Below are positions 12,125 through 32,158 of a DNA stretch of 64,000 nucleotides, in pieces. The notes below the pieces were generated by a model, which saw nothing but the letters and a program-made list of their open reading frames with translations, had not been told where the DNA came from and ran no database searches. A program made the translations under genes and the position numbers. This stretch comes from Telmatactis stephensoni (Eukaryota > Cnidaria > Anthozoa > Actiniaria > Isophelliidae): assembly GCA_029948255.1 (NCBI GenBank), contig JALIZF010001868.1, positions 62,001 through 126,000 on the forward strand. Reading direction: 5' to 3'. Each line of letters opens with the position of its first letter. Position 1 is the first letter of the stretch.

Positions 12125-12535
12125 TCACAGTTCAGTTGAACACAGTGTAGTAGTCAAAGTACCATTGATAACTTGTGTCTCATCGAACTCAATTTCTGAC
12201 ATAGATAAAGTTTTCCTTGTTTTTGAAAAGACTAGCTGATAAGCTGGCAAAATCGGGAGAGTGTTTCGTCTTTGCTCTCTAATCCTTTTGCCTTTGAGGT
12301 TTGGTAAAGTGAACGATGGGTTTTCGTCTTCAGTGTCTATCAAATTTGTAGCAGATTCGCTGGAGTAGCTGCTACTTGTTGATGTGCTGCATCTTGTGGT
12401 GCCTAAATTTCCTTCTAAAGCTGAAAACTTTACGCTTTCTGACTCAGCAATAAAAATATGACACTGCCGGTGTACTTGGACAGTTGTTTCCGCCATTTTA
12501 TGCTGAGAAATTGCTTCTTGCTCATCAGCTTTCAT
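12125..12535 (-). CDS. CSTEL-tail family member 1 (136 aa, unrecognised)
   Basis: I do not recognise this protein outside the window. It ends NGTLTTTLCSTEL-stop, the tail shared by five local genes; the final T-E-L fits the class I PDZ-ligand pattern (S/T-x-hydrophobic-COOH). No signal peptide or membrane segment is visible. The body is polar and probably disordered, with a Ser/Thr run (TSTSSSYSSES, about residues 50-62) and basic phosphosite-like words REQRRNTLP and KTRKTLSMS. An in-frame GTG six bases upstream could extend the frame, but ATG at 12533-12535 (MKADEQEA) is the credible start. Single open frame, no intron needed. Expressed or not is unknown; conservation of the tail in differing codons argues for a real protein. 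Confidence 0.75.
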   Translation of the reverse strand: MKADEQEAISQHKMAETTVQVHRQCHIFIAESESVKFSALEGNLGTTRCSTSTSSSYSSESATNLIDTEDENPSFTLPNLKGKRIREQRRNTLPILPAYQLVFSKTRKTLSMSEIEFDETQVINGTLTTTLCSTEL

Positions 12536-13142
12536 ATTCACCGCGAGCTTCCCGTGAAGTACTCGAGTTGACTGGTGATATCAATCTTGATGAGATTATC
12601 CCCCTTTGACTTGCTAATTTCAACAGTAACTATCATCAATCTTTGATTTCAAGCTTCTTATAATTGATTAGCGTTGAGGGTCTCACTTTAACGTTTCCAA
12701 AATTGTTGTCAGCTGCTAACCATTCTAGGGACACTGCCTTTCAACCAGAAATATGTCCTCTATGGAAGTCTCAAAACTTGCTGTTGTCGATGATAAAACC
12801 TGAAAAGATATTTCTTGGAAGAACATTGACTTTCTTCAAAGTCCTTTTCAAGTCAACGAAGCAAAATAATTGTGGTTTTTTAAGCTTAAGACGATAAGAC
12901 GCGTAAAGGCAACGACTTCTCCCATCTGCTACTTGAACAGACTAATTGTTCTGAGTAATGGATAAACGGCTGGCTATCTGGAACACTTGGAATACCTTTT
13001 AAGAAAAGTGAGTGACAGGAAAGCGCTGCATTAAACCAATGGTGAGCATATAAACTTCAGTTATAAGATACTTAAAGGGGATTATTAAACCTATGAGTCG
13101 TGACGTACATGGCGCTGCATGCACGCATTGAACTCAATATGT

Positions 13143-13205
13143 GTGCACAATTGTATTGTTAAGTGCACAATTGTATTGTAAACTGCACAATTGTATTGTA
13201 ATCTG
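13143..13205. repeat. Three tandem copies of a 20-bp unit
   Basis: TGCACAATTGTATTGTAA with a two-base spacer is repeated three times. The centre CAATTG is palindromic. It lies between the first two CSTEL-tail genes. Confidence 0.9.
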
Positions 13206-13477
13206 CAGTTTTATCAACAAAAGAAAGTCATCGCGTAAATTTGTGTGAAATTTCAGTGCCTTAAGAAAATTAAATGCGAATTAAAGTCATTTTTATACAT
13301 GTACATAATACAAAGCTAGGTCAAATATAATGAAAAATAACGAGCTTTTACCGAAATGTCTCTGTCCATAGACAAACGAAGGTTATGTAACTCCGGTCAA
13401 GGTCGAATCACTAAGCGAAGTTTCGTCTCCTGCAGCCAAAAAATGCATTTATTCTTCCGTTCAAAGCGCGAGCTCAT

Positions 13478-13752
13478 TGTAAAAAGACAACAGAGCATAA
13501 CTCAGAGGGGGCAGGTTGAAAATACCATGAATAGCTGATTTCTAAAAATACCCTATCGAATGACGTTTAAAAGTAACCAATCAGCATAGAGTGTACTTAT
13601 GACGTCACACATGCAGTATAAAAATGACAACAGAATATGACTTAGAGGGGATAGGAAGAAATATCAAAACCAGTTGATTTCTAAAAATACCCTATCAAAT
13701 GACATGATAAAAAATTACCAATCAACATACAGCATACTTATGACGTCACACG
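13478..13752. repeat. Tandem duplication of about 140 bp, each copy ending in TGACGTCACAC
   Basis: Two diverged copies (about 13478-13615 and 13618-13752) share AAAAAGACAACAGA/AAAATGACAACAGA, GATTTCTAAAAATACCCTAT and ACTTATGACGTCACAC. Each carries a perfect TGACGTCA palindrome (13600-13607 and 13741-13748) and CCAATCAgCAT/CCAATCAaCAT. Non-coding. Confidence 0.8.
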
Positions 13753-14355
13753 CAAAAATGTTTATGAAAATTTTACCACTCGTGACCCATTTTGCGTCAA
13801 ATGCATACCGGTCACGTTGATTATATTTAGTTGCAAATAATATCGCCCGTCGAATATCATGCATCCCAGTCCCTTTGTCTTCTAAACAAACGTGGGGGCT
13901 TGGGTCTTGAACAATGATGCGTATAATTGGGTCCGGTCTCCAGACGTCGGGGTTACGTGCACCCGCGGGTCGCACCCGCGCGTAATTCAAATTGAGATTT
14001 TATCACCAAGGCAACTAATTTTACAAAATAAACAAATAACGTAACCGATAGTTTGGAATGACAATAATTACTAAAAAATTTGTACAACTTGTGCGATATG
14101 TTTAATCCAATCAATTATATTATAATTATTATAAAGTTGCACCAATCTCAGCAATGGTACTAATTTTAACGATTGTTACAACCCTTTCTAAAAATGCCCT
14201 CCTTGGCTTTCTTGATAATATTTTATAAAACAGTCAAGTATACCCTGGAATTGAACCAGAGGTTTATTTCTATCTGGTTTCCAGGGTAATTCAAGCAAAG
14301 AATGTTTACATAATCTATACTACAATCTTGGTTGTTATTTCATTTTTTGAACAAT

Positions 14356-14672
14356 GTATACCGTATATTCTCGACTTAGACGCCGGGGGCGTTTATATAT
14401 GTAAAACTCGACCTTGTTTAATTTGTAGACCTGGCGTTATCAAGTGAAATTTTTACCATGACGGCTTATTTCGATAGAATAACTAAACTTGAAAAATGTC
14501 ACTAAGCTGTCATATCTCAGCGAATTTGGCTAGTAGTTCTGGTAGTTGAGCGGGACCCCGAATAAACGCTGGGGATATTAATTTGTTTTAAACTAAGCCG
14601 GCCTGGTAAACCCGGTGTTTAGTTGAACTCGGCGTTTATTCGTGTCTCGACGTTTCATCAAGAAAATACGGT
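14356..14672. mobile_element. MITE-like element with TACCGTATwTTCT ends
   Basis: The left end TACCGTATATTCTCG and the right end AAGAAAATACGGTA are inverted copies. Inside, GGCGTTTAT-type words recur (GGGGGCGTTTAT, AATAAACGCTGGGG, CGGCGTTTATTCG) in both orientations. No coding capacity; about 317 bp. Confidence 0.6.
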
Positions 14673-15285
14673 ACGTACATTTAGACTTCGTCCAAAGCAA
14701 TCATGATAAATTTGAAAATGTATCTTCTTCCGTTCAGAAAAAAATCTAGTTTCCTTGTTATCTGCGAAAAGGCCGTTTCGATACAGTATAGAGAGCGAGA
14801 ACGGAGAGCGGAGAAAATAAGATGCGTTTTCAAATTTATGGATTAGTGACATAGCCTTAAGGCCATTCTCCAGACCTCTCTGAAAGCACTCGCAGCGAGC
14901 TAACGAGTACCCGTTGGGAATAAAATCTATTGTTCAAAATTTCGCTACGAGCTGAGTAAAAATCAAATGTCATTTCTGTCTTGCACTTAATTAAGTTCAT
15001 TATCAGTATAAAAGGCTTCGAAAGCATAAAATGAAGTTTCTAAAAACGTTTTCGGGCCGGTGATATACTGGGTCATCTTCAGTCGAAAAAAGGCCATTGG
15101 TCGTTTTTTCTGGGCAAGTTGAAGCACAAGTGTTGCTCCCTTTGAGCATTCAGGCCACATTCCACCCTTTAGCTTATACTTATCGAATTAGCAACTCTGA
15201 CAAGTTGTCTCTGCACGTTTCAAGTATGATTTTTTCCGCATGATAATGAGAAAGCTATAGCTCAATGTGGACACATTGTCAGTTT

Positions 15286-15894
15286 TCAAAGTTCGGTGGA
15301 GCAAAAAGTCGTTGTCAAAAACCCATCCACCATTACCGTGTCTTCTTCCTCGTAGTAAACAGTATTGTTTATAATAACCACCTTTTTGCTGTCTTTCCCA
15401 GAAAAGCTCTTTGAGCGAATTTTTGAAGGAATTGGTCTTGGTATGGAATCGTAGAATTGAGGCTCGGTTTTTCTACGCTGGAATTTTTTCCATTGCTTTA
15501 GGTGCATTGGTTTTATTGCTACGTCTTCTTTGTCACTCTTAGCTTCTTCCATTATAGCATGCTGAAGTGGAGGAACACTTTTGGCAGAAGTTACGGCGGA
15601 ATTTTCTTGTAAAGAATGTCGGAGTTTTTTCCATTGCTTTAGGTGCATTGGTTTTATTGCTACGTCTTCTCTGTCATTCTTAGCGTCTTCCCTTCTAGTA
15701 TGCTGAGGTGGAGGAATACTTTTGGAAAAAGGTGCGGGATTTTCTTGTAAAGAATGTCTTCTTGAAAGTGTGTACAATTGTACAACTTTCTTGCTGAATC
15801 TTTGTGCCAAAGAAGCCAAGTTTTCGGGTAAAGTCTGTTGGCAGTCTTTTTTATAATCGAAATTGTCGTTCTCCGTGTCTATAACTGACAACAT
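15286..15894 (-). CDS. CSTEL-tail family member 2 (202 aa) with a duplicated 47-residue module
   Basis: Unrecognised protein ending DGFLTTTFCSTEL-stop. Residues about 46-92 and 93-139 are two copies of one module: RRHSLQENPA...EDVAIKPMHLKQWKK and LRHSLQENSA...EDVAIKPMHLKQWKK. The DNA repeat has an exact 141-bp period (landmark words at 15490 and 15631), so it stays in frame. After it come RRKTEPQF and KIRSKSFSGKDSKK, the second family motif, then an acidic stretch (YYEEEDTVMVD) before the tail. No signal peptide or membrane helix; probably a cytosolic, largely disordered protein with basophilic-kinase-type sites. Single exon from ATG at 15892-15894. Function unknown. Confidence 0.8.
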   Translation of the reverse strand: MLSVIDTENDNFDYKKDCQQTLPENLASLAQRFSKKVVQLYTLSRRHSLQENPAPFSKSIPPPQHTRREDAKNDREDVAIKPMHLKQWKKLRHSLQENSAVTSAKSVPPLQHAIMEEAKSDKEDVAIKPMHLKQWKKFQRRKTEPQFYDSIPRPIPSKIRSKSFSGKDSKKVVIINNTVYYEEEDTVMVDGFLTTTFCSTEL

Positions 15895-16195
15895 TTTGGC
15901 GAGCAGGCAATATTGCTAGACTCACAGAAGTTTGTCAGAGTCTTACTATTTTAAAACCCATCACTCTCTCTCGCATGTCTTCCCTCATATGCCCTCCAGT
16001 TGTTTACTTTTAATTCTTTAAGGTCCTCATTAAACGTCAAATTGTTGAACAAAAGATGTAAAGACGCTCATTCAAGAGGGCTTAACTCACATATTTTGGG
16101 CCAAACATGTTATTGTTCCTTAACGATATTGTTAGTCTAAGTTATTAATAAGGTTTGTATATCTATCATAGGAAGTTGACAAGGATCACTGGTTA

Positions 16196-16600
16196 ATCAA
16201 GTAGGGTGTCCACCCTCACTGAACGTTAATTGCCTCTAGTTGATCCATGCATTTATTCGCAGTCTCAAACACTTAAACCACTTACAAACATTACTATACG
16301 ATCTTCGATCATGAACTCCATCAGAGCAATACCATTTTGATACCCAATTTTAACTACCAATTTTAAAGATACTCTAAAAAATCCCAAATCACTTCAAAAT
16401 TGATATAGGTAGTAGGGTGTCTACTCTTACTAAACATTATAATTGCCTTTTTAAATTACTTACTCGTAATCTCAACCACTTAAACCATTCATAAACACTT
16501 CTATACAATCTTCGATCATGAACTCCATCAATGCAATACCATTTTGATATATAATTTTAACCACCAACTAATATATTAAAAGATACTATGAAAAATCCCA
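16196..16600. repeat. Tandem duplication of about 215 bp
   Basis: Both copies begin AGTAGGGTGTC (16200 and 16412) and share ATCTTCGATCATGAACTCCA and GCAATACCATTTTGATA. They differ by small indels and substitutions. Non-coding, upstream of family member 2. Confidence 0.85.
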
Positions 16601-17270
16601 AATCAAAATTGATATATCTTAAAACAAAATATACAGGCAACTTGAGTGCCATCCTTGCCATGCATGGCTTACAATTAAGATAAGTCTCAAGAAGCCTACC
16701 CAATGCCTGCCTAAAATGATAATGATAATGATAATGAAGATGATGATGAAACGGTTTCAAAAATTAAACAAATTAAAAGAAATCTTTTTTGGGAGGGGAA
16801 GTCCAAGAATGCCACATATTCTCCCGTAGAACAGTCTTGGTATCCACTAAATGGTGGTCACAGTTTCGGCGTATGACTGTGAAAACGTTACAGCCAAGCA
16901 CAGCCAGGAATTTGGAATGTTTTTATAGACATCATGGCACTGGCATGGCGACATTACGACGCGGACGCTTCACCACTTATACAAAATCTGCGCTATTCAA
17001 CACGCACGTGTATTGTCGCCCTCTATTCAAAATTTGATGACAAATTATATGAGACCAATTAGCTTTGTTTACTCGAGAATCCGCGCAACAATGCAGACAT
17101 ACATGCTTCTGTATATTAGCGTGTAAGCAAAGCAACTACGCGTCAAATGTATAGCTATAAACATTAAAATAAAATACGGCTTCAGCTCTCTATTGACGGA
17201 CCAACACTTGATACATTGAACAGATATGGTACATGATGGTGATGATAATGATGATGATGGCATGAACCAG

Positions 17271-17668
17271 TAGAGTGATTTGATTTAAAAAGAAAAATGG
17301 CTATTTAGTTTGTACTAGTTGATAATAAAGAAAAAACGAAAACAATGAGTCTACTACTAAAGGCGCTGTTACACTGTGCAATTCTCCCAGCAACTTGTCT
17401 CGCAACGGCGTTTCAAAACAAGTTGCAGAGACAATTATGGCGCTGTTACACTGTGCAATTTTCCCTAGCAACTTGCAATATTTTTGGTCAGTTGCTGGGG
17501 AAAATTGCACAGTGTAACAGCGCCATAAGTTTCTCTGCAACTTGTTCTGCAACGCCGTTGCGAGACAAGTTGCTGGGGCTGGGAAAATTGCACAGTGTAA
17601 CAGCGCCTTAACTATTATACGTATTATTTTTTCACGGGTTCTTGCTCGGGTTAAGTAAAATCACTCTA
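17271..17668. mobile_element. Nested MITEs: GAGTGATTT...AAATCACTC element split by a GGCGCTGTTACAC element
   Basis: Outer ends GTAGAGTGATTTGATTTAAA (17271) and the TTCACGGGTT...AAATCACTCTAC end (to 17668) are inverted and related to the 9.4-kb family. Inside, 17361-17608 is a second element with ends AGGCGCTGTTACACTGTGCA / inverted copy and extra internal copies of the arm. It is a fourfold foldback of about 248 bp whose frames on both strands (CYTVQF, QCNSAI) are artefacts of the repeat. Confidence 0.8.
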
Positions 17669-18063
17669 CATTCATTCTGTTCGTTGTTGTTGTTTGTTTG
17701 TCTAATACACCCACTCTTATTGATCCTGATGAATTTAAAACTCATTTTTTAACTCCGTAATCGCTCTTCACAGTGAAACAGCAATTATTTGACGAATGGA
17801 AAACGTGACGACGGCCGAAGACGGAAGACAGAAGGCGTTACCGTAGTAAAAAGGGGCGTTTTTGAATTTATCGCGGGGATATTACTGTGGCGTACCCTAA
17901 TAATACACTAGAAAGCTCACGTTCTCTTCTCTCGAACACCACGTGTACTCACGATTCTAACTTGGGACTAATTAACAAGTCCTTCCAAAATTCCGCGCAA
18001 CGACCTTAAAACGTGACTAGCAATGTTTATTCAAGAGATAGAAATTGGGAAATCGTGCTTGGC

Positions 18064-18345
18064 TTACAAATGGGTACATAACCTCATTGATAACGTTAAC
18101 AAACTTGTTGGCTGGCAGGACGTCAATCCTGCAAAAAAAAAAATCTTTATTTTAAGGAGGGTATAGACATTATTACCGGTGACCTGGTACTTGTGTCGGG
18201 ATCGTATTATCTTTTCCCCTCGAGTATAACTAATCTCGTATCTGACAGTTTGCCCCTTATTGGATTCATGTTTCCGGTGTGACTCCTTAGTTACTGCAGT
18301 TGCTACGTCTCGCAAGCAGTCGCGTATTTTCTTAGACATCAGCAC
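18064..18345 (-). CDS. Uncertain open frame, possible exon or gene remnant
   Basis: The 93-codon frame begins MSKKIRDCLRDVATAV and goes on with a charged, protein-like composition as far as SRHKYQVTGNN; the last 30 residues look like non-coding translation. A donor-like CCG|GTAATA follows TGNN's region, so this could be a 5' exon or a decayed gene. I do not recognise it, and there is no family tail downstream. It may equally be chance. Confidence 0.2.
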   Translation of the reverse strand: MLMSKKIRDCLRDVATAVTKESHRKHESNKGQTVRYEISYTRGEKIIRSRHKYQVTGNNVYTLLKIKIFFFAGLTSCQPTSLLTLSMRLCTHL

Positions 18346-18460
18346 ACACAGAAAAAAGTGTGATTGTTAAGTCAATAATTTTCAGAATATTTCATAAGGT
18401 AGACTCCCACTGTTTTAACTGTTTCTAGATAAAATTCGAAAGACCTTTCGTATACGTTAA

Positions 18461-19016
18461 AGTGCTACTATTATGAAAAAACGCCGAAATCAAATTTAGC
18501 TGAAACGACACTAAATAACTCTTTAAGGATCTAATAATCACTAGGTAAAATCTTTTCTCGGTATTCCAAAGGGAAGTACTATATTTTTATGAATCTTTAG
18601 AGGTGTCAGTGACGTCATTTACTCAACTCACAGCTTCGCTTCATACCGATTTCTTTGTATTTAGTTAACGTTGGCCAGTGATTTATTTTATTTCTTTTAC
18701 ACTAATAGTTTGTGTGAAAGGGTTTTATTGCATTGTTTGCGTCTAGAATTGATTTTCTGGCCAATTGTATTCAATGTAGAGCATTTACATTGACGGATAT
18801 TTCGATGAACAAAATACAAAGAATGTATGGAAAGTATGGAGCGAAGCGGTGAGTTGAGTAAATGACGTCACTGTCACCTCTAAAGATTCATAAAAATATA
18901 ATACTTCCCTTTGGAATACCGAGAAAAGATTTTACCTAGTGATTATTAGATCCTTAGGAGTTATTTCAGTGTTCTTTCAGCTTTTGATTTTGGCGTTTTT
19001 TCATAATAGTAGCACT
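18461..19016. mobile_element. Foldback element D, 556 bp, with TGACGTCA in both arms
   Basis: The ends AGTGCTACTATTATGAAAAA and the inverted copy close two arms of about 200 bases with few differences. Both arms contain TCTTTAGAGGTGTCAGTGAC plus GTCATTTACTCAACTCA, giving TGACGTCA at 18610-18617 and 18863-18870. The central loop is AT-rich and non-coding. The core is shared with elements at 22022 and 58103. Confidence 0.88.
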
Positions 19017-19205
19017 TACTGATTTAACTTGATTGTCTGGTAACGATTTAACATTGGGAATTATGATTATATAATTACAACAGTTATTTCTAAATTTGTA
19101 AAATTCAAGCTAGAGCCGCGGTGATTCCACAGAATCGGTTTAACGCCGTTTGCGCCCTTGATAGTTTTGTGCGCATGTTCAATACATTTACAAAAGTTTT
19201 TATTC

Positions 19206-19335
19206 CAGGTCATTATTTATCACCTGGGGGAAGGAGGGGGAGGAGAATTTTTAGGGGGAGGATGGGAGGATTGCATGATTTTAGTCGAAGCAAAAGAGGG
19301 GATCATTCGGCTTTTATCACTTTGAGAGGGGGAGG
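19206..19335. repeat. G-rich dispersed element; inverted relative at 21665-21838
   Basis: The block starts GGTCATTATTTATCACCTGG, followed by GGGAGGAGG runs and GGGGATCATTCGG. Its reverse-complement relative at 21665-21838 ends in GGGGATAAATAATGACCGGT with GGGGGGATCAT words. The 87-codon frame over it is Gly/Arg repeat translation and is not accepted as a gene. Confidence 0.65.
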
Positions 19336-20211
19336 GGGGGTCACAGCTGATGAACAAGAACTCTTCACCATAGTTAAGCAATAGAAGATAGTTTTCTATG
19401 ATTCATCGGTGAAATAGAGCACGCGTGATGTTGGGAGAAACACGAGAAAAGTTTGAAAATCATGAGCCGTAGGCCTTTCATTTCTTCGTCCTCCCAAAAA
19501 AACACAGATCGCTAGCAACGCAGGGTAAAGTTTGGGTTACCTTACTAAGGTAAAATTTGTGGATAGACTTTTTGGTATAATCATTCATCAGAAAACCATG
19601 TCTTTACCGGTGAAATAGAGCATAGATTTTGGTGGTCTCTCAGCCAATCAGAATGTGTGTTATAATTGAGCTATATTACACTGATTTATGTTAAAGACCA
19701 AGACAAAAAATGAAAAAGAGAGTAAACTTTTGCAACTACCCATATACGTACTCCTCTTCGGGTCTAGTGGCGTGGGCTCTCGTATGAAAACCTTGAGGTG
19801 TAACTAAAACATACATCTTTTCAGTTTCCAAAATAACCAGAAAACAGCCATTCAGTGAGTTACTTTACTTAAAATATATGAGATATAATGCTTGCAAGTA
19901 TTGTTCCACATTAGTATTACTTTTTCACAAGAAAATTTAAACACAATATCTGCATTGCTATTCGAAAACAAGCGAATTCTTGACGGCTCATTATCACATT
20001 TTTCATTTCCCAAATTACAGTAACCAAACATAAATAAATATATAAGAAAAGGAAATAGCCATTGCGAGCCATTTGCATAATTGTTACATTATTTTTACCA
20101 AGCGGCTAACGCTTTGTGCTCGAATGATCTACAATCCTTGCCAGAATTAGTTGGCACGATGTAAAATATACGGATTTTTTGTACATTATATACTTTGTGG
20201 CTATATTATTA

Positions 20212-20326
20212 GACCCCCCTCCCCCTGTACAATGTTGCTGGTAGCTAAAAGGTATGTTGCATGGACTGATTGCCGAGTAGTAGGTGTCGGGGGTTGTCAC
20301 AGCAACATTGTACAGGGGGCGTGGGG
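20212..20326. repeat. Short inverted repeat with CCCCCTGTACAATGTTGCTG arms
   Basis: Left arm CCCCCTGTACAATGTTGCTG (20221) and right arm CAGCAACATTGTACAGGGGG (about 20301) are perfect inverted copies around a loop of about 60 bases. It is probably a small MITE; no gene inside. Confidence 0.8.
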
Positions 20327-22021: not shown

Positions 22022-22563
22022 TTGCTACTTTGATCAAAAATCGGTGAAATTTTATTTTGCAGAAACTTCGTGAAAAAAATCTTCAAGAGTCTATTGATCA
22101 CCAGTTAAAATATCTTTTTGGTATTCAAAAGGGGAATTAAGTACTAGATTTTTAGCGTTCTTTTTAGGTGTCAGTGACGTCATCGACTCAACTCATGGAT
22201 TCAATCCATACATTTCTTTGTATTTTGCAATCAAAATATCTCCGTGTAATTTTTTTCGAATTGAAGATCACTGGCAATGCAGTTAATCCTTGACACAACT
22301 GCAAGAAAACTCTTTTCAGCAAAATTATTAGAGCAGAAATGAATAAAATAATTCAAGTCATAAAATACAAAGAAATGTATGGAGTAAATCCATGAGTTGA
22401 GTCGATGACGTCACTGGCACCTAAAAAGAACGCTAAAAATCTAGTACTTCCCTTTTGAATATCAAATAGATATTTTAACTGGTGATCAATAGACCCTTGA
22501 AGATTCATTCAACGAAGTTTCTGCAACTAATAAAGTTTCACCGATTTTTGATCAAAGTAGCAA
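22022..22563. mobile_element. Foldback element E, about 542 bp, with TGACGTCA in both arms
   Basis: The ends TTGCTACTTTGATCAAAAAT and the inverted copy close arms of about 200 bases. Each arm has GGTGTCAGTGACGTCATCGA / inverted, with TGACGTCA at 22175-22182 and 22406-22413. A truncated relative lies at 58103-58475. The left arm has small insertions (GGGGAATTAAGTACTAG against GGGAAGTACTAG). Confidence 0.88.
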
Positions 22564-23149: not shown

Positions 23150-23239
23150 GTATTAATAATGATGATAATAATAATTATAATAATAATAATAATAATTAAA
23201 TATATTTAAAAAAATATCATTATTACTATTATTATTATT
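23150..23239. repeat. (AAT)n/(ATT)n tract beside the large palindrome
   Basis: TAA/AAT triplets (23152-23200) and ATT triplets (23217-23240) form a loosely inverted pair flanking the start of the long foldback element. Confidence 0.85.
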
Positions 23240-23628
23240 ATCTGTTCTCTGATGTCACAGTGACGTCACTCGGCGTCGGAATTTTGTCCATTTTATTGCA
23301 CAATTATCGGATAACGTAACTCTAAAAAGATTTACATTGGGATGGTTTGGTGTCATTATAGGACTTTATTTTAATGTGAGGATTTAAATATTGCAAAATG
23401 ATAAGTTATTCTGATAGTAATCACCTCATTTGACAAAAACGTCCTTAATCCCGTTGATTATGATCCATAACCCACCTTCGTGGCCTATTCGACCTCCAAG
23501 GTCAAAGCAGACTAAGGATCTGTTTATATGGAGGCGAGCCAGCCCGGTATGTCCGGGCTGACTTCTTTTGTTCTCTGGGCCCCCCCGGCTGGCCCCAAGG
23601 GAAAAGAAAACAAAAGAAGTCGGTCTGT

Positions 23629-23659
<31 letters not shown>

Positions 23660-23934
23660 ATCCTTAGTCTGCTTTGTACCTTGGAAGTCGAATAGGCCAT
23701 GAAGGCGGGTTATGGATCATAATCAACGGGTTTAAGGAATTTTTAGTCAAAAGGTGATTACTATCAGAATAACTTATCATTTCGCAATATTTAAATCCTC
23801 ACATTAAGAAAAAATCCTATGATAACACCAAACCATCCCAATGTAGTATTTTTAAAGTTACGTTATCCGATAATTGTGCAATAAAGTGGACAGAATTCCG
23901 ACGAGTGACGTCACTGTGACAGCAGAGAACAGAT
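23240..23934. mobile_element. Giant foldback element, about 695 bp with about 330-bp arms
   Basis: The ends ATCTGTTCTCTGATGTCACA and AGCAGAGAACAGAT are inverted. The arms match over their whole length with scattered changes, e.g. CGGATAACGTAACT / AGTTACGTTATCCG and GATCCTTAGTCTGCTTTG in inverted copies. The loop at about 23560-23605 is short and GC-rich. TGACGTCA occurs at 23261-23268 and 23906-23913. It ends about 500 bases before the start codon of family member 3. No coding capacity. Confidence 0.9.
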
Positions 23935-24439
23935 CACGTGGTGATGCCATTCAGTGTTAAACACAATATCAACTTCGGTAAGTGCTTTTGTCTTTGTGGC
24001 TTATTTAAATACTTGATATTTGTTTGTTGTGCTTTTTGTATATGCAATTAATTGACGTTTTCACTTGGTCGAATTCTTAAAACATGTCGTATAACATAAC
24101 TACGATGATAAAACTTGGCAGAGTGATATACGTAAGTCGTTTTTGCCTAATAGTTATGTCTTTAAAGCGACACTGAAAATCTTGCATGCAGGATCGAGGC
24201 CACTGTCATGGATGAGTGATCAAATTGGATTTGCAAGCTAGTTTACATTGGCTTTGTCAAAATATATTCATAGTTGTTTCGGTACCTTTATCATACTTGA
24301 CAATCCAGTACTCCTGTTCATGGACAATCCTTCAAGGAGTTTCTAAGGATATCTTTTCTCTATCAAATTATCGGTGATTAAATACTCGAGAATGGTTAAC
24401 TAAAACAACATTTAAGGAATCCAGTGAGAGAGAAAAGCG

Positions 24440-24859
24440 ATGGGCATGCAAGTAGAACAAGCGAACGAGTCCAGTTGTGACGAAATTTTGAGTATGAGTC
24501 CTCAAGCTCACGACAAATCTTTACTCCAAGAATCACATATGAATGAACATACCATCTCTAATGAAGAACTCAAGATTCATGACGATCAAAAACAAAATAA
24601 TCTAACAGACGTCGACTGTACTAGTAAAACTGAGATGGTACAACCTAAAAGAATACTACACGCAAAACCACGGCTTCACCGAAGAAAAAGCAGTTCATTA
24701 TCAGAACTAGACAAAGCTATAAGTTTATTGAAATTGGAGGATTCTCGGTCCAAAATTCGTCGATATCACTCTTTTGACTTTTCGCCGGATGGTACGGAGA
24801 CTCATGTGGACGACACGGATGGATTGTTGACAACATCTTTGTGTTCCACTGAACTTTAG
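24440..24859 (+). CDS. CSTEL-tail family member 3 (139 aa, unrecognised)
   Basis: Unrecognised single-exon protein ending DGLLTTSLCSTEL-stop, the same last 13 residues as member 4 but in different codons (TTG TTG ACA ACA TCT against CTT CTC ACA ACT TCG). The first 60 residues are acidic and polar; the second half is basic, with LHRRKSSSLSELDK (about residues 79-92) and KIRRYHSFDFSPD (about 104-116), which resemble PKA or 14-3-3-type R-R-x-S sites. No signal peptide or membrane segment. ATG at 24440 follows an AG-rich leader; a second ATG two codons on (MQVEQ) is also possible. The stop codon lies in the first unit of a 107-bp minisatellite that runs on into the 3' flank. Confidence 0.8.
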   Translation: MGMQVEQANESSCDEILSMSPQAHDKSLLQESHMNEHTISNEELKIHDDQKQNNLTDVDCTSKTEMVQPKRILHAKPRLHRRKSSSLSELDKAISLLKLEDSRSKIRRYHSFDFSPDGTETHVDDTDGLLTTSLCSTEL

Positions 24860-25200
24860 CTCTTGATCCCAAGAAGGAAATACATTGATGCTGTTTTTGT
24901 TACTTTTCAGAAAAATTGACAATGCCTGGACAATTGATAGGATATCTTTAGTCCACTGAGCTTTATTACTTGATCCCAGGAAAGAAGCACGGGCATTGCA
25001 GCTGCTATCTTTCTTACTTTGCAGGCAAATTGACAATGCCTGGATGACTTTGAGGGACATCTTTAGTTCAGTTCTTGATCCCAAGAAGAAAGTGCATTGC
25101 TGCCGTTTTTCTTACTTTTCAAGAAAATTGATAATGCCTGGATGATTTGAAAGGATATCTTTAGTTGTCACTGAACTATAGTTCATGATCCCAAGAAGGA
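24842..25200. repeat. 107-bp minisatellite that starts inside the last codons of member 3
   Basis: Landmark TTGATCCCA (ATGATCCCA in the last copy) occurs at about 24863, 24970, 25075 and 25184, giving periods near 107. Each unit has GACAATGCCTGG-like and TATCTTTAGT-like words. The unit includes TCCACTGAACTTTAG, the last codons and stop of the gene: later copies read TCCACTGAGCTTTA and TCACTGAACTATAG. Copies 2-4 are non-coding. Confidence 0.85.
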
Positions 25201-25375
25201 ATTACATTGATTGACCTTGATTTGATTTGAGACATTTTCTCGGCCAGGAACAGACTGCAAGTTTTTGGGATGTCTTCAGTGGATATAATTTGTATGTATA
25301 TATATGTAGATAGGTTTAAATGTTTATGCTTGCTGACATGCTTTGTGTATTTAGTTTATATTTAAGGAATATAAA

Positions 25376-25549
25376 ACGCGCGCGCATGTCTCTGTTACTG
25401 TGATATAAACACGATGGAAGTTGTAGAGCAAGAGAAAAGCAAGCTTAGGAACACGAGGCGTAGCCGAGTGTTTCTCTTGCTTTTCGAGTGCTCTACATCT
25501 TCCAGAGTGTTTATATCACAGTACAGAGACATAAGCGATCGTTTTATAT
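25376..25549. mobile_element. Foldback element F with GCGCGCGC end
   Basis: The left arm (ATGTCTCTGTTACTGTGATA, then TAAACAC) and the right arm (GTGTTTATATCACAGTACAG plus AGACAT) are inverted copies around a loop containing AGAGCAAGAGAAAAGCAAG and its complement. A further diverged arm at about 25588-25640 ends in CCAATCAGCGCGCGCGTTAT, the CCAATCAG-type terminus seen throughout the window. Confidence 0.8.
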
Positions 25550-25640
25550 TGCTTTTATAAAATATTTTCGACGTTTTTTGAGCGAGCCATGTCTCTGTCC
25601 TCCGATATAAACATGGTAGCCAGCCAATCAGCGCGCGCGT

Positions 25641-26803
25641 TATATCTCAAATATTTTATAAATAACCTAATATAGTTGTAAGGTAGAAAAAATGGACAAC
25701 AGGCATTTTGCAGGATCTGGTCATGTGACACAAGTCAATATCAGCTCTGATCACAAAATGGACAGAATTAAAGAGCACTTTCAGGAGTTTTACAGTTTTT
25801 GATTCTAGATCTAATAGTTCAAGACTGGAAGTTTTGAAAACTTGATTCCAGAAAGAATGGTTTTGCTGGTCGGCATGGCTTGTAAAAAATTGGAATTCCA
25901 AAAATTCATTATTCTTTTTCTGGTATATGAATAAATCCTCAAACACAGAAAAAGCCCTAGAATAAAGGTGCTGTTTGAGAATGTAGTCCATTTTGTCATC
26001 AGCTTAAATTTTTGTAACTTGTGTCGATCGGACCAGGCTTGCTAAGGTACTCAAACCACACCATAGGCCTTGGATTACCTGTGGTCATGATACGTCGTCT
26101 GCTACCATGGATACCATGCTCACTAATTAATGATGGTTATAGTTAGTGCAATAGATAGTGTTTGTATGCAGTTAGATCAAATCGCGAGCTACTGTCCTTC
26201 ACCAAAGCCTAATAGAAAGTTAATTACAATTTAATTGAAAAACAATATGTGATGAGTCGAATAGCAGACAAAGTGAAGTGATGTCAAGCGCACAAATCCG
26301 TGATAAAGGCTATAAATAAACTTAGACAGTTTGTCAAATCCCAACATAATGCTATGTAGTTTTGAACTAAAGTTGTTTGCGCGCGTTGCTATGACAACCA
26401 ATTTTGTAAATATTATGTCTAATGTCAGCCAATCATTTTGTAAATATTGTCAAATTTGGTATGTGATTTGTAATGATATCAAAATTGAGTTGCATATTTT
26501 ATATTTATAGTTCTTCATGCTTGATTGTTTCCTTTGAATAACGAAAATTGTTTTCAAGAGCATTTGTGTCTTGAGAACCCTGACGGTATTTGACGGTCAT
26601 AAAACCCGAATCAATGAAATGAACTCCGACCCTGAATAATGATATCCAATTCATAATGACTGTATCGGACGATCTGATGAAGGCCAAAAATGCTGCAATA
26701 GAATCTAGCTCATCTCAAAGATCTACAGCATAGCCAGTCAGTCTATTGTTCTTTGCTTTCTCTTTGAAACAAGCCACAAGATCTTTTTGCATACTGTACA
26801 ATC
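25641..26803. other. Spacer between members 3 and 4, no gene seen
   Basis: No supported gene. A short repeated phrase (TTTTGTAAATATTATGTCTA and TTTTGTAAATATTGTCAA, about 26401-26455) is a small duplication. The last 300 bases should hold the promoter of member 4, but I see no clear TATA box. Confidence 0.4.
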
Positions 26804-27202
26804 ATGGATACGACGGGTGAAGAGAAAGAAGACACCTCCAAAAATGTGAAATTAGAATTAACAGTCCCAAAAATCTTCACCTCATTCGACAGCGATCAAG
26901 CGCAATCAATCGATGCGTCGAAGGTACTTGACTTGAAACATAATGAAAACGACTCAAGGATTAACGCAGCAGTCGACGCCAACGCGGACTGTCCCAGTAG
27001 TCTGCTGGTACGTAGACGGAGCTCTGGAGCAATGAGCAAAAGAAGTGCTAATGATGTTAAAAGCGAGTTCTTTCTAAAAGAGCCGGAGTTTATTCGCGAT
27101 TTGAGACGTAATTCATACAGTGGCCGTTCGTACAAAGATGAATTCGACACAATGTTGGAAGATGGGCTTCTCACAACTTCGTTATGTTCCACGGAATTAT
27201 AA
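26804..27202 (+). CDS. CSTEL-tail family member 4 (132 aa, unrecognised)
   Basis: Unrecognised single-exon protein ending DGLLTTSLCSTEL-stop. It is acidic and polar for 65 residues, then has LVRRRSSGAMSKRSAND (about 68-84) and DLRRNSYSGRSYKDEFD (about 99-115). The second matches the family motif RRxS[FY]SG[RK] also seen in members 2 and 5. The ATG at 26804 (ATCATGG, a fair start context) gives MDTTGEEKEDTSK. No signal peptide, membrane helix or cysteine-rich region. It lies 1.9 kb after member 3 on the same strand, so these two may be a tandem duplicate pair. The 166-codon frame on the opposite strand is a shadow. Function unknown. Confidence 0.8.
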   Translation: MDTTGEEKEDTSKNVKLELTVPKIFTSFDSDQAQSIDASKVLDLKHNENDSRINAAVDANADCPSSLLVRRRSSGAMSKRSANDVKSEFFLKEPEFIRDLRRNSYSGRSYKDEFDTMLEDGLLTTSLCSTEL

Positions 27203-28913
27203 ATAGATGAATCTTTTTTCTCTTCACTGGCTTGGCGCGATATGCTACAAGATTTCGAGAGATCAGTTGCTAGCTGGTAAGGTTTCATGTGATTACTAAA
27301 CAGTATTGCAGAAGATGGTACTTTGTTGCCGTTTTGCTTACATGGCTTAGTGTGAACTAAGACAATAATGTAGGAGATGAACACAAATTTGTTCATGCAG
27401 TTAATAATATTAGAGAATATAGATAGAACGCTCTGATAAGAACTAGAAAATATTAATGAAGTATATCAGGAGACAAGCCCACAGATAAGAAATGAATGGA
27501 TAAGAAATCATCTGGTTTTGGCTTTGGCATATTGTATTTAGATAATAACCGTTTTTAAATGTGATATGTTTTACGCGCTAACTGGAGACACTGTACGTTC
27601 GCACACACTATAACTGCATTCTAATAGTGCAATAATACTGTTGTTATTGTAGTTAGATATCGTGGCTACTGCACAAAGATGCGCGCGCACTGGAAATTGA
27701 CAAGACAAGGTGTCTCAAAAGTTTGTGCCCCTGTTTTTTAACTGAAATAGTTTTTTATTAACTGGCCCTGGACTACCTCAATTCTAGGGTGTTCTTCTAT
27801 GCTGTGTCTACTATTTATGTGAGGAATTTCAGCAGCGCACGTGCATGGCCATGGCCTCCTTTGGTTTTATCACATTATTTAATAATCGCGATATCAAATG
27901 TGATAACTCTTGGAGTGATGAAAAATGACATCTTGTTGTATGCTTTGCTTGATGAAAATTTCACTTTTTTCAAGTGTTTTTGAATTTTCTTTGGCTGACA
28001 TTCCAGAAATTCGCACTGCAGATCTTTGAGCTTGTAATTAATGTGATTTGTTTTCGTTATATTTTGAAAATGAATGAACAGGAAGTTTGAGAAACTCAAA
28101 ACTGCTAACTGTGAACAATTGAAATGGTGGCACCGAAAACGCACAGACATGAAAAGAGCCCGTTTTGAGATTTAAATGCGGATGAATTAATTAAAACTAA
28201 GAACATCAACTGCAAGATTGTTTATAAAATGTCCGGAAAATGCTTTTCCATATAGCCGAAATAAGATAATACAAAATCAGGGGTAAAAACACCTTGTTTT
28301 CTGTGCGCTACTTTAAAATGGTGAGTAGGTAACGCGGAAGTAAGACGGGAAAGGAAGAGACAACGTAGAAGACGAGGGGGGAGTACTATGGAGTTGTAAT
28401 TTCAGAAGATGCGTTATTACGTGTTACATCATTATTCTGATTTGTTGCGTTATATGGTGGCCAGGGGAACTATCCTCTGCCTCTATTCAAGGGAAAAAAC
28501 TAGTGAATAAAAGTGTACGCGCTTATGAAAGACAGCCACTATTCAACAAAACAAGTACACAGTGATCTTCATCCTGAACCAGTCGGTAAAGATTTAACTG
28601 TCTTGGAACCAAAGATCAAACTGAGTGGGATATTCAAGGTCTTGGGTTCAAAAAGATAGACATCGAAGAACATGATCAGCTCATTTCGGTCTTGTCATCA
28701 CACCAGGTCTATAATTACGTCACGGTTAAACCTGCATAATATCACTGCATGCATTAATATACATTGACTTTTGCCCTAATGTCATGTAACAATTCAATTC
28801 AATGATAACGAAGTGTGGGTATCATTGAATGCACTGAGGGAGATGGTGTTGGTGATCGCGACGAATCGAAACAAACTAAGTCATTTACTTCAGTCAAAGC
28901 TGTTCGTATTGTA
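27203..28913. other. Non-coding stretch after member 4
   Basis: AT-rich; I see no supported gene, tandem array or clear inverted repeat. Frames at 27789-27983 and 27875-28150 overlap on opposite strands without a recognisable motif. Confidence 0.4.
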
Positions 28914-29148
28914 AAGCCTGGTTTACACTCGTTTGTAAAGCCTTGTTTACACTAGCGACACAAACATACAAGCAACATATTCATATTACGTTTATCAAAT
29001 AAGTGTGAAAAAGACAAGCACTGCAAATGAGCAGTACATTACTGAGTCTGTGTATGTTGCTTATGCTTATGTCACTAGTGAAAAGACGAGCAGTACATTA
29101 CTGAGTCTGTTGCTAATTATACTTATGCCGCTATTGTGAACCAGGCTT
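28914..29148. mobile_element. MITE with AAGCCTGGTTTACAC ends
   Basis: The left end AAGCCTGGTTTACAC and the right end GTGAACCAGGCTT are inverted. The left end is partly repeated at 28937 (AAGCCTTGTTTACACTAG). Inside, GAGCAGTACATTACTGAGTC is directly repeated (about 29028 and 29088). No coding capacity. Confidence 0.8.
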
Positions 29149-29565
29149 AATTAAGAGAGCAGTTCAATCAGCAATGTTTGGTTGCCGCGGACTATACATG
29201 GCTTTGTTGTATTTTTGATTCACAAACGTGAGACAGTTGGCTCTGTAGTTCTCATCTTGTGATGTTTCAAACTTGATCGCCCAAGGACATACTTGGCTCT
29301 CTAGTACTTTTGACCTACAGTTGGCTCCATGTATATAGTTTTTAATATAGTTTTTAATCTTGTTATGGTTCAAAGTTTGATTGCCAAGGGCTATGCTTTG
29401 CTCTTTAGTTCTTTTGGCGTCATACTTGTATAATTATTTTATGATGACGTTTTTCTTACTGTGGAAAATTACCGACCACTCGTGACGGGGACCACGAAGA
29501 CGCTACCAAAGAATGCAACTGATGAAATTGCAAGATGAAACGCAAAAATATCTATCTTGAGGAGG

Positions 29566-29880
29566 ACTAGTACAAGCACGTTTTGACACACCCACTTCAC
29601 TCTAAAAAAGAAATGAATAGTCCTCTTTCGAGAGATGCTTCACCTAGTACATATACAAAGGAATTTGAACGAGGCTAAGTGGAAAGAGCTCGTACTTATG
29701 GACTTTCGTCTAGCTAAGAATGACTGAGCTTTACGCTCGTAGCCTTGTCTTGGTTACGTGTATGTAGTAAGTGAAGCATGTCTGGGAAGTTGGTTACTGT
29801 GGTTACTGCTAACCGGATAAAAAGTAAAATATCTATGAGAAGGACTAGCACAAGCACGTTTTGCCACACCCACTTCATGT
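29566..29880. repeat. Direct repeat pair of about 35 bp
   Basis: ACTAGTACAAGCACGTTTTG plus ACACACCCACTTCA at 29566 recurs as ACTAGCACAAGCACGTTTTG plus CCACACCCACTTCA at 29846. The 245 bases between show no gene. Confidence 0.75.
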
Positions 29881-30387
29881 TCAGCCCACATCAGACAAGT
29901 TTAATAAAAGATAGATTATTAATTGCTTTGTTCGATTAGTCTTAACCTGTTTTATCATCAATATATCTTAGCAATGATTATCAACGATAACAGCAGTAGA
30001 CGGGTTAATTGAACTTCAATGATTTAAAATAACATGGCGAGAATCTACCAGTTAGGCAGTTCCAATCTGTTTTGGCCAGTGAATCAAAAATTGACACATA
30101 AAGAACGAAAAAAGATATATTTAGAGGGCTTAAGATTAAAAATGTTTTAAGGGGATTGAGCTTAGGATTTTGATTCAGTGTGATAAAAACGACTTTCGAT
30201 AGTTATCTACTATATATAGGGTTAGTCAGTACGTCAGACAATAATGCCAGCCAGCCCAAGTAACTACTCATGAATACTTGACCTTAGCCAACTGATGGCA
30301 TATAAAAAAGCACTCTCCAAAACCTAGCCATCTTGGTACTTTTACTCATCAAAATACTAGATAACACATTACAATCTTCTATCTAAC

Positions 30388-30513
30388 ATGGCGCAAGAAT
30401 CCCAGGATTTAAATTATTTCTATCATCATCAGAAAGGTCACGACCAAATGGTTTACCTCAGGGGTTTGCTATTTGTTAGCCTCAATCATGCATTAGAGAT
30501 TCTACAAGTCTAG
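30388..30513 (+). CDS. Candidate small ORF or first exon behind a TATA box (41 aa)
   Basis: TATAAAAAAG at 30301-30310 lies about 80 bases upstream of an ATG in good context (AACATGG). The frame reads MAQESQDLNYFYHHQKGHDQ and continues to 41 residues. It lies between members 4 and 5 of the CSTEL-tail cluster, but no CSTEL tail follows in any frame I read before 31074. It could be a decayed family member, a first exon, or chance. Support is the TATA-ATG geometry only. Confidence 0.2.
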   Translation: MAQESQDLNYFYHHQKGHDQMVYLRGLLFVSLNHALEILQV

Positions 30514-31074
30514 ACTTTTCCATGTTACAAAAAAGAACTAAAAATAGATTTGGTATCGGTGTTGAACAAGCTTAAGAGCTAGTACGTGTACAACGTAGCA
30601 TACCATGTAGATTATAGGACCTTATAGGCTGTTTAGGGTCATGTCTCCTTTATTAAATGAAATGCTTACTCCTTTTTCAAAAATATATGCCCATCTAGTA
30701 ATTATTCCGGTCATTGATATCTCAATTGAGGAAACAGAATATCCACAAAAGTTTATATACATACTGATTTTAGTGAACTTGAACAACTTTTAAATCTTCA
30801 TTTCAGTAGTGAATGTTTGTAATTTTTCCATGGATTAGACACACAGTCGTACTGCGTGTCAATTTTCATTTGTCTTGACATATTATTATTCATGTTGTTG
30901 GTGTCCCACAGCGCTCATCAAAAAGCATGATTTTGAACAATATTCAGACAAGTTTGAATACGTGAAGTCATGCCAGTGACATGCACTGACGCACCGAGGT
31001 GCTTCTGATTATTACATAATTCAAATGAACTCTATCGACAACTCGGCAGCAAAAATACATGATATATTCTCCTA

Positions 31075-32158
31075 TTAAAGTTCTGTAGAGCACAAATTAG
31101 TTTCCAACATTCCATTCGTATCACGATGGGTTTCCGACTGAACCCTAATCCGAGCGCTACACGATCGACTTCGGTCCTCGTCGGTGATCTGAGACCAAAA
31201 TGGAAACTCGAATGAGTTGCTGTTTTTTCGCTCGAGCAACTTTTTGTCGGAGACTGCACGCTGTTTCAATCCACGCTCTAAGCTTAAGGTGGAAAACTTA
31301 GAAGACCTGAGTTCTTGCTTTGCACCTAAAGGCTTTCGTAGCATTGAAGTCAGTTTGATCGCTATATCTGCGTTGATAGTTCGTGCGGAAAGCGTGATCA
31401 TCGCGATTAATGTTTTTAAGGTCGATAATCTTATAAAACACGGGTGGCTGTAAATACTTAGATCTTTGTTGTTCTGGGGAGCCGGCCGTTGTATGGTTGG
31501 AATTACTAGGGGTAATACTTTTGATTTTATCTTTAATTCTGCCGCTGAATGATCGACTTCTTCGTAGAGAGCGAAAACCGATCGGAGGTTCCACGTTTTT
31601 TTCACACTGCGATTTTGATTGAATTTTTTTGGTGAACCATGCCGGGAAGAACTTAGTGGCCTTCTTTGTATCATTTTGTTCGAGCTGAAGTGATTCCATG
31701 ACTTGATTACCATCGTTTGACGTTTCCTGCTGCGGAGACGCACTCAATGACCCGCGAGGGCAGTACTTTCCCTGTATACACGTATCCAGTACTTCTTTCC
31801 CTTCAACTAAAATCTTCATGTGAAATTCTTTATAATCAGTCAGATCAGAGTGACTTTGCTTTTGAAGCTTAGGACGACGTCGTGCGCTCATTGCGTAAGG
31901 CGGTGGATATTTGGGCCTTGGTTCGGTGTTTGGAAGCTGGTTTGATCCATGAATTTTTTGTTGAGTAAGGTTGCCAATTTCCACCTTATCTCTGTTGCCT
32001 GAACCGTTACATATATCATCCCCCTCTCGAAAATCACTTAAGCAGCATTCATGAAGGCTATGTTCTAAGTGAGTGGTTGATCCAGATAGCGTCTCGTTCA
32101 TCTGTGGTTCAATCCTTAGCGTTAAGTCACGAGCAGGTTTCTTCATCGCAGAAGTCAT
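31075..32158 (-). CDS. CSTEL-tail family member 5 (long form) with a reading-frame break
   Basis: Unrecognised. The frame from ATG 32156-32158 runs 286 codons and stops near 31298. The family tail (NGMLETNLCSTEL-stop, ending 31075) is in the next frame, which is open across the junction. Either a frameshift or a 46-base intron (31306-31261, CAG|GTCTTC...GAAACAG|CGT) joins them to give about 345 residues. The first part carries RSLRRSRSFSGRIKDK, the family's RRxSxSG[RK] motif, and QRRYSDQTDF; the second has RSRSCSARI just before the tail. A proline-rich word PRPKYPPPYAMS lies in the N-terminal half. No membrane segment. TTTATAAACA, a TATA-like word, lies about 42 bases upstream. It could be an intact gene with a mini-intron, an assembly indel or a recent pseudogene. 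Confidence 0.65.

What the first reader, a model, noticed from the sequence alone, without database searches (positions are those of the whole stretch)
12125..32158. Cluster of five unrecognised genes sharing an invariant CSTEL C-terminal tail
Seen: five open frames (ends at 12125-, 15286-, 24859+, 27202+, 31075-) finish NGTLTTTLCSTEL, DGFLTTTFCSTEL, DGLLTTSLCSTEL, DGLLTTSLCSTEL and NGMLETNLCSTEL, each followed directly by a stop. G, L, T, C, S, T, E and L are invariant. Codons differ: the T of STEL is ACT, ACC, ACT, ACG, ACA; the last L is CTG, CTT, CTT, TTA, CTT; stops are TGA, TGA, TAG, TAA, TAA. So the peptide, not the DNA, is conserved, while the rest of the proteins barely align. Established: T-x-L-COOH is a class I PDZ-ligand pattern. 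Inference: a lineage-specific family of cytosolic, disordered adaptors that plug into one PDZ scaffold through a fixed tail while the bodies diversify. Alternatives: a C-terminal degron, or lipidation of the Cys at position -5 (a non-canonical C-x3-L end).
Basis: partly seen in the sequence, partly recalled or inferred. Interest (0 to 1): 0.93.

Follow-up and report, generated by a model that had tools for sequence, protein, structure and literature searches.

The report
Disordered adaptors sharing one PDZ-like tail
Five neighbouring predicted genes in one genome (probably a cnidarian's), and at least three more elsewhere in it, would encode otherwise very different proteins that all end in almost the same short peptide, which is predicted to plug them into a shared PDZ-domain scaffold inside the cell.

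Summary
Five frames in the window end in [DN]GxLxTx[LF]CSTEL-stop with different codons and stops; the next best frame end scores about 42 bits below the weakest of them. Homologues of two of the five genes, from unnamed sources, keep the tail (5 of 5 found). Three further members lie elsewhere in the same 483.5 Mb genome, ending NTDLCSTEL, ETDFCSTEL and TTVLCSTDL; a fourth is a weaker candidate. No member scanned matched Pfam above a cut-off; the two modelled look disordered. The bodies share one feature: R-[RKS]-x-[ST] sites (21 against 4.8 in shuffles). The Cys seems part of the signature: of 17 Cys-less look-alikes read, none closes a long frame. Best reading: a family of disordered, phospho-regulated adaptors that dock on a class I PDZ domain. 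The closest known tail chemistry is the S-T-x-L end of the kinases RSK1 and RSK3, which bind Scribble PDZ1. PDZ binding, phosphorylation, expression and host lineage were not tested. The papers listed in my searches gave no earlier description.

The parts
12125..12535 (-). g1, 136 aa single open frame (MKADEQEA...), ends NGTLTTTLCSTEL; homologues P0001, P0002
12128..12166 (-). g1 conserved 13-residue tail
12254..12271 (-). g1 RRNTLP, fits the canonical 14-3-3 form Rxx[pS/pT]xP, identical in P0001 and P0002
15286..15894 (-). g2, 202 aa single open frame (MLSVIDTE...), ends DGFLTTTFCSTEL; holds an in-frame duplication of 141-bp period (47 aa) at 15480-15758
15289..15327 (-). g2 conserved tail
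15406..15417 (-). g2 RSKS basophilic site (-43); a second, RRKT, lies at 15466-15477 (-63)
24440..24859 (+). g3, 139 aa single open frame (MGMQVEQ...), ends DGLLTTSLCSTEL
24680..24694 (+). g3 RRKSS basophilic site (-59); a second, RRYHS, lies at 24758-24772
   Evidence: RRYHS read from the sequence
24818..24856 (+). g3 conserved tail
24835..25211 (+). tail end and start of 3' region of g3 repeated, 4 copies (spacing 105-110 bp); the three non-coding copies do not encode CSTEL-stop
26804..27202 (+). g4, 132 aa single open frame (MDTTGEEK...), ends DGLLTTSLCSTEL; homologues P0003, P0004, P0005
27011..27025 (+). g4 RRRSS basophilic site (-63)
27104..27115 (+). g4 RRNS (in LRRNSY) basophilic site (-32), invariant in P0003-P0005
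27161..27199 (+). g4 conserved tail
31075..31743 (-). g5 tail-bearing open frame, ends NGMLETNLCSTEL; the part above about 31,300 is probably not coding in this frame (judged by eye)
31298..32158 (-). g5 start-bearing open frame (MTSAMKKPARD..., 286 aa) with RRSRSFSGR and RRYS sites; link to the tail frame (splice or frameshift near 31,300-31,330) not resolved
31078..31116 (-). g5 conserved tail
31156..31173 (-). g5 RSRSCS basophilic site (-32); a second, RKNS, lies at 31219-31230 (-51)

Best explanation
These predicted genes likely encode a family of disordered, cytosolic adaptor proteins whose near-invariant C-terminal peptide T-x-[LF]-C-S-T-[ED]-L would dock them on a class I PDZ domain, while basophilic (R-x-x-S/T) sites upstream would let kinases, and possibly 14-3-3 proteins, regulate each adaptor separately. 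Shown: the shared tail in 8 open frames of one genome (5 of them clustered) and in 5 proteins from elsewhere; selection on the tail peptide; enrichment of R-[RKS]-x-[ST] sites; no Pfam hit above a cut-off in the pieces scanned; low-confidence (disordered-looking) models for the two members modelled. Inferred: PDZ binding (T at -2 and L at 0 are the class I anchors); that the paralogues share one scaffold (from the nearly fixed -1, -3 and -4 residues, stricter than class I requires); phosphorylation of the sites; a phospho-switch at Ser -3 as in the RSK tail. Mechanism proposed: the tail is a common plug, the bodies are variable cargo or regulatory modules, and duplication with rapid body divergence yields interchangeable adaptors that compete for, or are recruited to, the same scaffold.
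For: The five-tail signature is expected 1.3e-7 times in the window. Codon divergence with peptide conservation: pS 0.69, pN 0.18 over 13 codons pooled over 10 pairs. Homologues P0001-P0005 all end in LCSTEL; tail 13/13 and 10/13 invariant while the N-terminal parts average 41% and 23% identity. Further members g6, g7, g8: single open frames of 159, 112 and 162 aa with basophilic sites, ending NTDLCSTEL, ETDFCSTEL, TTVLCSTDL; the E-to-D change keeps class I form. Of 32 Cys-bearing look-alike places read outside the window, g6, g7, g8 and the second copy of g6 belong to long frames, one on C17 has 64 open codons before the motif, and the other 27 have 1-40. Of 17 Cys-less places read, all have 2-46, so within this search the Cys marks the family. 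R-[RKS]-x-[ST]: 21 observed, shuffle mean 4.8, 0 of 5000 shuffles reach it. AlphaFold2 mean pLDDT 54.6 (g4) and 50.2 (g1) on 3-row alignments. Class I PDZ form and p-2/p-3 phospho-control: PMC8786283 (passages). RSK1 ...PSTTL and RSK3 ...TSTRL peptides bind Scribble PDZ1, better when Ser -3 is phosphorylated: PMC6100724 (passages).
Against: No PDZ domain was tested and no interaction tool was available. The conserved stretch (up to 13 residues, with an invariant Cys at -4 and T at -7) is longer than a minimal class I ligand needs, so it may do something besides, or other than, PDZ binding. The broader motif R-x-x-[ST] is not enriched in most members taken singly (p 0.12-0.51 for g1, g2, g3, g4, g6, g7; 0.008 and 0.010 for the g5 tail piece and g8), and R-[RKS]-x-[ST] is not significant in g1 or g7. 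Homologues were found only for g1 and g4 in 3 protein searches; candidates were picked by words that include the tail, so relatives without the tail could have been missed. The genome patterns required the Cys and the stop. In one search the reversed-pattern control (198) exceeded the observed count (30), and (Cys left free) it was 80 against 73, so the counts alone show enrichment only for the strict pattern (33 against 6). No transcript evidence. g5 has a frame break. Host lineage unverified.
Confidence: 0.58

Rival explanations
1. The tail is a non-PDZ C-terminal signal: a C-degron or other C-terminal recognition element that sets protein turnover of the family.
For: The peptide sits exactly at the C-terminus in the five window genes and five foreign homologues; small disordered regulatory proteins are often unstable (recalled); g6 carries DSGFVSD, which fits the recalled beta-TrCP phosphodegron form DSGxxS.
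Against: Known C-degrons are mostly defined by the last few residues (recalled); here about eight positions are fixed or nearly so, and T(-2)/L(0) match class I PDZ anchors.
Confidence: 0.13
2. The invariant Cys at -4 is a lipid or redox site (S-acylation, or prenylation of a non-canonical C-x3-L end), tethering the proteins to membrane.
For: Cys is invariant in the five window genes and five foreign homologues; 17 Cys-less look-alikes read include no long frame; [LF] always precedes it.
Against: The canonical prenylation box has three residues after the Cys, not four (recalled); S, T and [ED] after the Cys are polar where aliphatic residues are usual (recalled); T and L at the end would not need to be fixed. 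A search for non-canonical five-residue prenylation listed nothing on it.
Confidence: 0.12
3. The tail is a KDEL-like ER retrieval signal (S-T-E-L) of luminal proteins.
For: E-L at the C-terminus; HTEL-type variants of KDEL are recalled to work.
Against: No signal peptide or hydrophobic N-terminus seen by eye in g1-g8 or P0001-P0005; Thr is not the usual second residue of the motif (recalled); conservation extends well beyond four residues.
Confidence: 0.03
4. The five genes are tandem duplicates whose tail is simply the slowest-decaying remnant, without a special function for the tail.
For: Clustered, four of the five single-frame; the g3 tail lies at the edge of a local tandem repeat.
Against: Tail codons are far diverged at synonymous sites (pS 0.69), members far away keep the tail, foreign homologues keep it while bodies diverge, and non-coding copies of the g3 repeat lack it.
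Confidence: 0.05

Closest known systems
RSK C-terminal PDZ ligands (RPS6KA1 ...PSTTL, RPS6KA2 ...TSTRL) bound by Scribble PDZ1 (PMC6100724, passages)
   Same: C-terminal S-T-x-L; Ser at -3 is a phospho-toggle there; same class I anchors T(-2), L(0).
   Different: RSKs are kinases; no Cys at -4 and no upstream G-x-L-T-T-x-L; here the tail sits on small proteins without known domains in a multigene family. Similarity of the tail only, no homology shown.
GKAP/DLGAP, a disordered postsynaptic scaffold with a C-terminal Shank PDZ ligand (PMC12589307, start of abstract in a search listing)
   Same: Largely disordered adaptor with a C-terminal PDZ ligand preceded by a disordered segment.
   Different: No GKAP model among the Pfam matches here; GKAP is reported to have gained its PDZ ligand only after the protostome-deuterostome split (PMC1876816, passages).
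HPV16 E6-type overlapping PDZ/14-3-3 motifs (PMC8786283, passages)
   Same: PDZ-ligand form and 14-3-3-like phosphosites in one protein.
   Different: There the two motifs overlap; here they are separate and there is no basic residue in the conserved tail core.

Membership tests
Class I PDZ ligand | [S/T]-x-hydrophobic at the free C-terminus | tested here: met
   T-[ED]-L-stop in 8 of 8 genome members (for g6-g8 the search pattern required it) and 5 of 5 foreign homologues; definition from PMC8786283
Class I PDZ ligand | binds a PDZ domain | not testable with these tools
   no complex prediction or binding tool
14-3-3 ligand | Rxx[pS/pT]xP | tested here: inconclusive
   sequence form met in g1 (RRNTLP), g2 (RRKTEP), g6 (RTFSDP), g8 (RSTSLP); not in g3, g4, either g5 piece, or g7; phosphorylation unknown
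GKAP/DLGAP | GKAP domain in Pfam | tested here: not met
   not among the matches for g1-g5 or P0001, P0003-P0005, g6-g8
KDEL-type ER-retained proteins | signal peptide plus [KRHQSA]-[DENQ]-E-L end (recalled pattern) | tested here: not met
   STEL has T at the second position; N-termini hydrophilic by eye, no signal-peptide program run
Prenylated CaaX proteins | Cys with exactly three residues after it (recalled) | tested here: not met
   four residues follow the Cys in the 8 genome members and 5 foreign homologues
Any Pfam family | profile match above the curated cut-off | tested here: not met
   no match above cut-off in 13 pieces scanned (P0002 and the C17 candidate not scanned)

The most novel reading that the evidence does not exclude
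A lineage-restricted family of plug-compatible disordered adaptors has evolved around one fixed C-terminal address, so that many paralogues with fast-evolving, phospho-regulated bodies share a single PDZ socket; the extended signature [DN]G-x-L-T-T-x-[LF]-C-S-T-[ED]-L, with its Cys, would define a new extended PDZ-ligand class. A candidate socket is an ancient scaffold such as Shank or Scribble, and for Shank this family could fill the place that GKAP takes in bilaterians.
Probability: 0.25. Interest if true: 0.8.

Novelty: new variant of a known kind. Interest (0 to 1): 0.62.

Why it matters
Genes without recognisable domains are usually left unnamed. Here a short C-terminal peptide, invisible to domain searches, ties such genes into one family and predicts a concrete class of partner. 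If one scaffold binds all of them, the family would show how a lineage adds new inputs to an ancient PDZ scaffold by keeping the plug and replacing everything else, and the prediction can be tested with one peptide.

Tried and rejected
Rejected: KDEL-type ER retrieval (no signal peptide seen), canonical CaaX prenylation (four residues after the Cys), GKAP membership (no Pfam match), simple duplication remnant (synonymous divergence, remote members). Promoter motifs: CRE-like TGACGTMA occurs 4 times upstream of 8 members against 0.98 expected from window density, but the motif is common in the window anyway (26 strand matches against 3.8 in shuffles), so I give it no weight. PDB sequence search with g3: nothing. 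Prokaryote genome contigs with g4: 38 pattern matches, no relative. Flanks of the cluster on its contig, C66:1-62100 and 125900-255000, scanned with the tail profile: best E 0.11, no further member accepted. Papers: searches for CSTEL (20 of 57 papers listed), coral + intronless genes + PDZ (33), cnidarian taxonomically restricted genes (36), PDZ/14-3-3 adaptors (41), PDZ-binding motif + Nematostella (67; 15 of 19 listed), RSK/PDZ/STTL (91; 8 of 58 listed), Scribble + cnidarian (100), farnesyltransferase non-canonical (101; 6 of 7 listed), Acropora + PDZ ligand (117) showed no description of this family among the listed titles; that is all I can say about its not being in print. PMC7138185 was queried and gave no passage.

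Genome tallies. Degenerate pattern for [LF]-C-[ST]-T-E-L-stop: 33 places against 6 in the reversed control. 13 of the 33 decode as exact [LF]CSTEL-stop: 5 in the window, g6 on two contigs, g7, and 5 short frames (C57, C58, C160, and one sequence on both C208 and C804), in line with the chance expectation of 4.7. 19 of the 28 places outside the window were read; the 9 not read are C3 (decodes FCWTEF-stop) and places without a stop, with a stop inside, or second copies. Looser pattern T-x-[LF]-C-x-T-[ED]-hydrophobic-stop: 30 places against 198 in the control, giving g8 and a candidate on C17 (LLTTDLCTTEL, 64 open codons, exon structure unknown); 18 of its 25 places outside the window were read, the other 7 lack a stop, have one inside, or are second copies. 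In all 32 distinct Cys-bearing places were read (decoded in 54, 63, 131, recounted in 134). Pattern with the Cys left free: 73 places against 80 in the control, 61 of them without Cys by my decoding; 17 were read, none a long frame. Not read of the 61: second copies, a repeat ending TTEF-stop (6 places), and places with another residue or a stop at -3 or no stop at the end.


Full report
What is there. The window is C66:62001-126000 of an unnamed 483.5 Mb genome in 1782 contigs. g1 to g4 are single open frames of 136, 202, 139 and 132 aa. g5 has its start in one frame (31298-32158) and its tail in another (31075-31743); a short GT-AG intron or a frameshift near 31,300-31,330 could link them, and I did not resolve which. 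None of the bodies matches Pfam above a cut-off.

More than chance. From base composition CSTEL-stop is expected 0.004 times in the window and the longer signature 1.3e-7 times. In a tail-matrix scan of window frames the five score 40.5-44.5 bits and the sixth -1.1 (the matrix was built from nine tails that include the five). Over the 13 tail codons, ten pairs pooled, pS is 0.69 and pN 0.18; for CSTEL alone 0.82 and 0.03, the latter from paths between Leu codons, since the residues are identical. The pairs are not independent and pS is high, so these are descriptive values. A natural comparison lies beside g3: its last codons and the following 3' sequence form a repeat of four copies spaced 105-110 bp, and the three non-coding copies do not encode the peptide.

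Relatives from elsewhere. Three protein searches of 5.8 billion sequences gave five distinct homologues: P0001 and P0002 for g1 (2 of 2575 candidates at E up to 10), P0003 and P0004 for g4 (2 of 2 candidates) and P0005 for g4 (3 of 5 candidates passed, one the query itself and one already known). All five end in LCSTEL. Against the own genome P0005 picks g4 (E 2.2e-22) and then only the g2 tail (E 0.28). In the g1 group the last 13 residues are invariant while residues 66-136 from the end average 41% identity; in the g4 group 10 of 13 are invariant, the 12 residues before the tail average 33%, the next 15 (with LRRNSY) 81%, and the N-terminal part 23%. Candidates were chosen by words that include the tail, so loss of the tail elsewhere could be under-reported. 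g2, g3, g5, g6, g7 and g8 were not searched singly in that collection.

Relatives in the same genome. A degenerate pattern for [LF]-C-[ST]-T-E-L-stop gives 33 places against 6 in the reversed control. Reading them shows a clean split: the five window genes, g6 (C110:709111-709590, also on C125 with an identical protein) and g7 (C532, 112 aa) close long frames, while the other five exact matches have 5-38 open codons before the motif and agree in number with the chance expectation of 4.7. A looser pattern adds g8, 162 aa, on the same contig about 420 kb away, ending TTVLCSTDL, and one candidate on C17 ending LLTTDLCTTEL with 64 open codons. That looser pattern as such is not enriched: 30 places against 198 in its reversed control, so g8 rests on its long frame and on its tail, not on the count. 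Of 32 Cys-bearing places read outside the window, g6, its second copy, g7 and g8 belong to long frames, C17 has 64, and the other 27 have 1-40 open codons. Leaving the Cys free gives 73 places against 80 in the control; I read 17 of the 61 Cys-less ones, those with S or T at -3 and a proper stop, one copy each except for a repeat ending TTEF, and all have only 2-46 open codons. So within these searches the Cys is part of what defines the family. Single-protein searches with g2, g6 and g8 found no further paralogue at a meaningful E-value.

Architecture. Outside the tail the members share a style more than an alignment: disordered-looking and carrying basophilic sites. R-[RKS]-x-[ST] occurs 21 times in the eight bodies (for g5 only the 71-aa tail piece was counted) against 4.8 in shuffles; 0 of 5000 shuffles reach it; the rate is 0.021 per residue against 0.0016 in other window frames. 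In several members one site lies near -60 and another near -32 from the end: RRRSS and RRNS in g4, RRKSS and RRYHS in g3, RRKT and RSKS in g2 (-63, -43), RKNS and RSRS in g5 (-51, -32), RSNS and RSFS in g6 (RRYHS read from the sequence). g1, g2, g6 and g8 have a site of the canonical 14-3-3 form Rxx[S/T]xP. Against this: member by member the enrichment is not significant in g1 or g7, and the broader R-x-x-[ST] is not enriched in g1, g2, g3, g4, g6 or g7 singly. AlphaFold2 gives mean pLDDT 54.6 for g4 and 50.2 for g1 on three-row alignments, consistent with disorder but weak as proof.

How it most likely works. The chain ends at Leu with Thr at -2: the class I PDZ-ligand form. Because -1 ([ED]), -3 (Ser) and -4 (Cys) are fixed or nearly fixed too, I infer selection for one particular pocket rather than for PDZ binding in general. 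The nearest described chemistry is the S-T-x-L end of RSK kinases, whose peptides bind Scribble PDZ1 better when Ser -3 is phosphorylated (PMC6100724, passages). Phosphorylation at -2 typically abolishes class I binding (PMC8786283, passages). The picture is a common plug with variable, kinase-controlled bodies. All binding and phosphorylation steps are inferred.

Known relatives. It would work like a small GKAP-type adaptor or an RSK-type ligand, but it is shown to be a member of neither: no domain is shared and the tail signature is its own. PMC1876816 (passages) reports that GKAP gained its PDZ ligand only after the protostome-deuterostome split while Shank is present in sponge; if the host is a cnidarian, a lineage-specific ligand family for such a scaffold is an open possibility, not a result.

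Limits. Host lineage not verified (the planned GFP-family search did not complete, last tried); no expression data; no binding test; g5 and the C17 candidate not resolved.

Noticed in passing
window 24835-25211: Tandem repeat (four copies spaced 105-110 bp) that starts inside the last codons of g3 and runs into its 3' region; the non-coding copies lack the tail peptide.
   Followed up: yes
window 15480-15758: In-frame duplication of 141-bp period (47 aa) inside g2, 88% matching.
   Followed up: partly
window 18498-18982, 22057-22526, 23274-23903: Nested inverted repeats of MITE-like form. The palindrome TGACGTCA is enriched in the window (26 strand matches of TGACGTMA against 3.8 expected); 6 of its 12 palindromic sites lie within or just beside these inverted repeats.
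   Followed up: partly
window 32555-32698, 34304-35032, 43759-43985, 44264-44870, 45577-45894: Minisatellite arrays with a 17-bp unit (ACAATGACCACCTCT-like and ATAATACAGACACCTCT).
   Followed up: no
window 40451-41536 (-): Rhodopsin-type GPCR in one open frame (7tm_1, E 1.2e-39).
   Followed up: no
window 57599-58024 (-): Frame with a KIAA1045 RING finger (zf-RING_15, E 6.7e-21).
   Followed up: no
L031 412-888: g6 carries DSGFVSD near its N-terminus, which fits the recalled DSGxxS phosphodegron form.
   Followed up: no
G000 contigs C110/C125, C208/C804, C316/C338 and others: Many pattern matches come in pairs with identical matched letters on two contigs (g6 identical over 217 bases and as a protein), which suggests uncollapsed haplotypes; the five window tails were found once each.
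   Followed up: no
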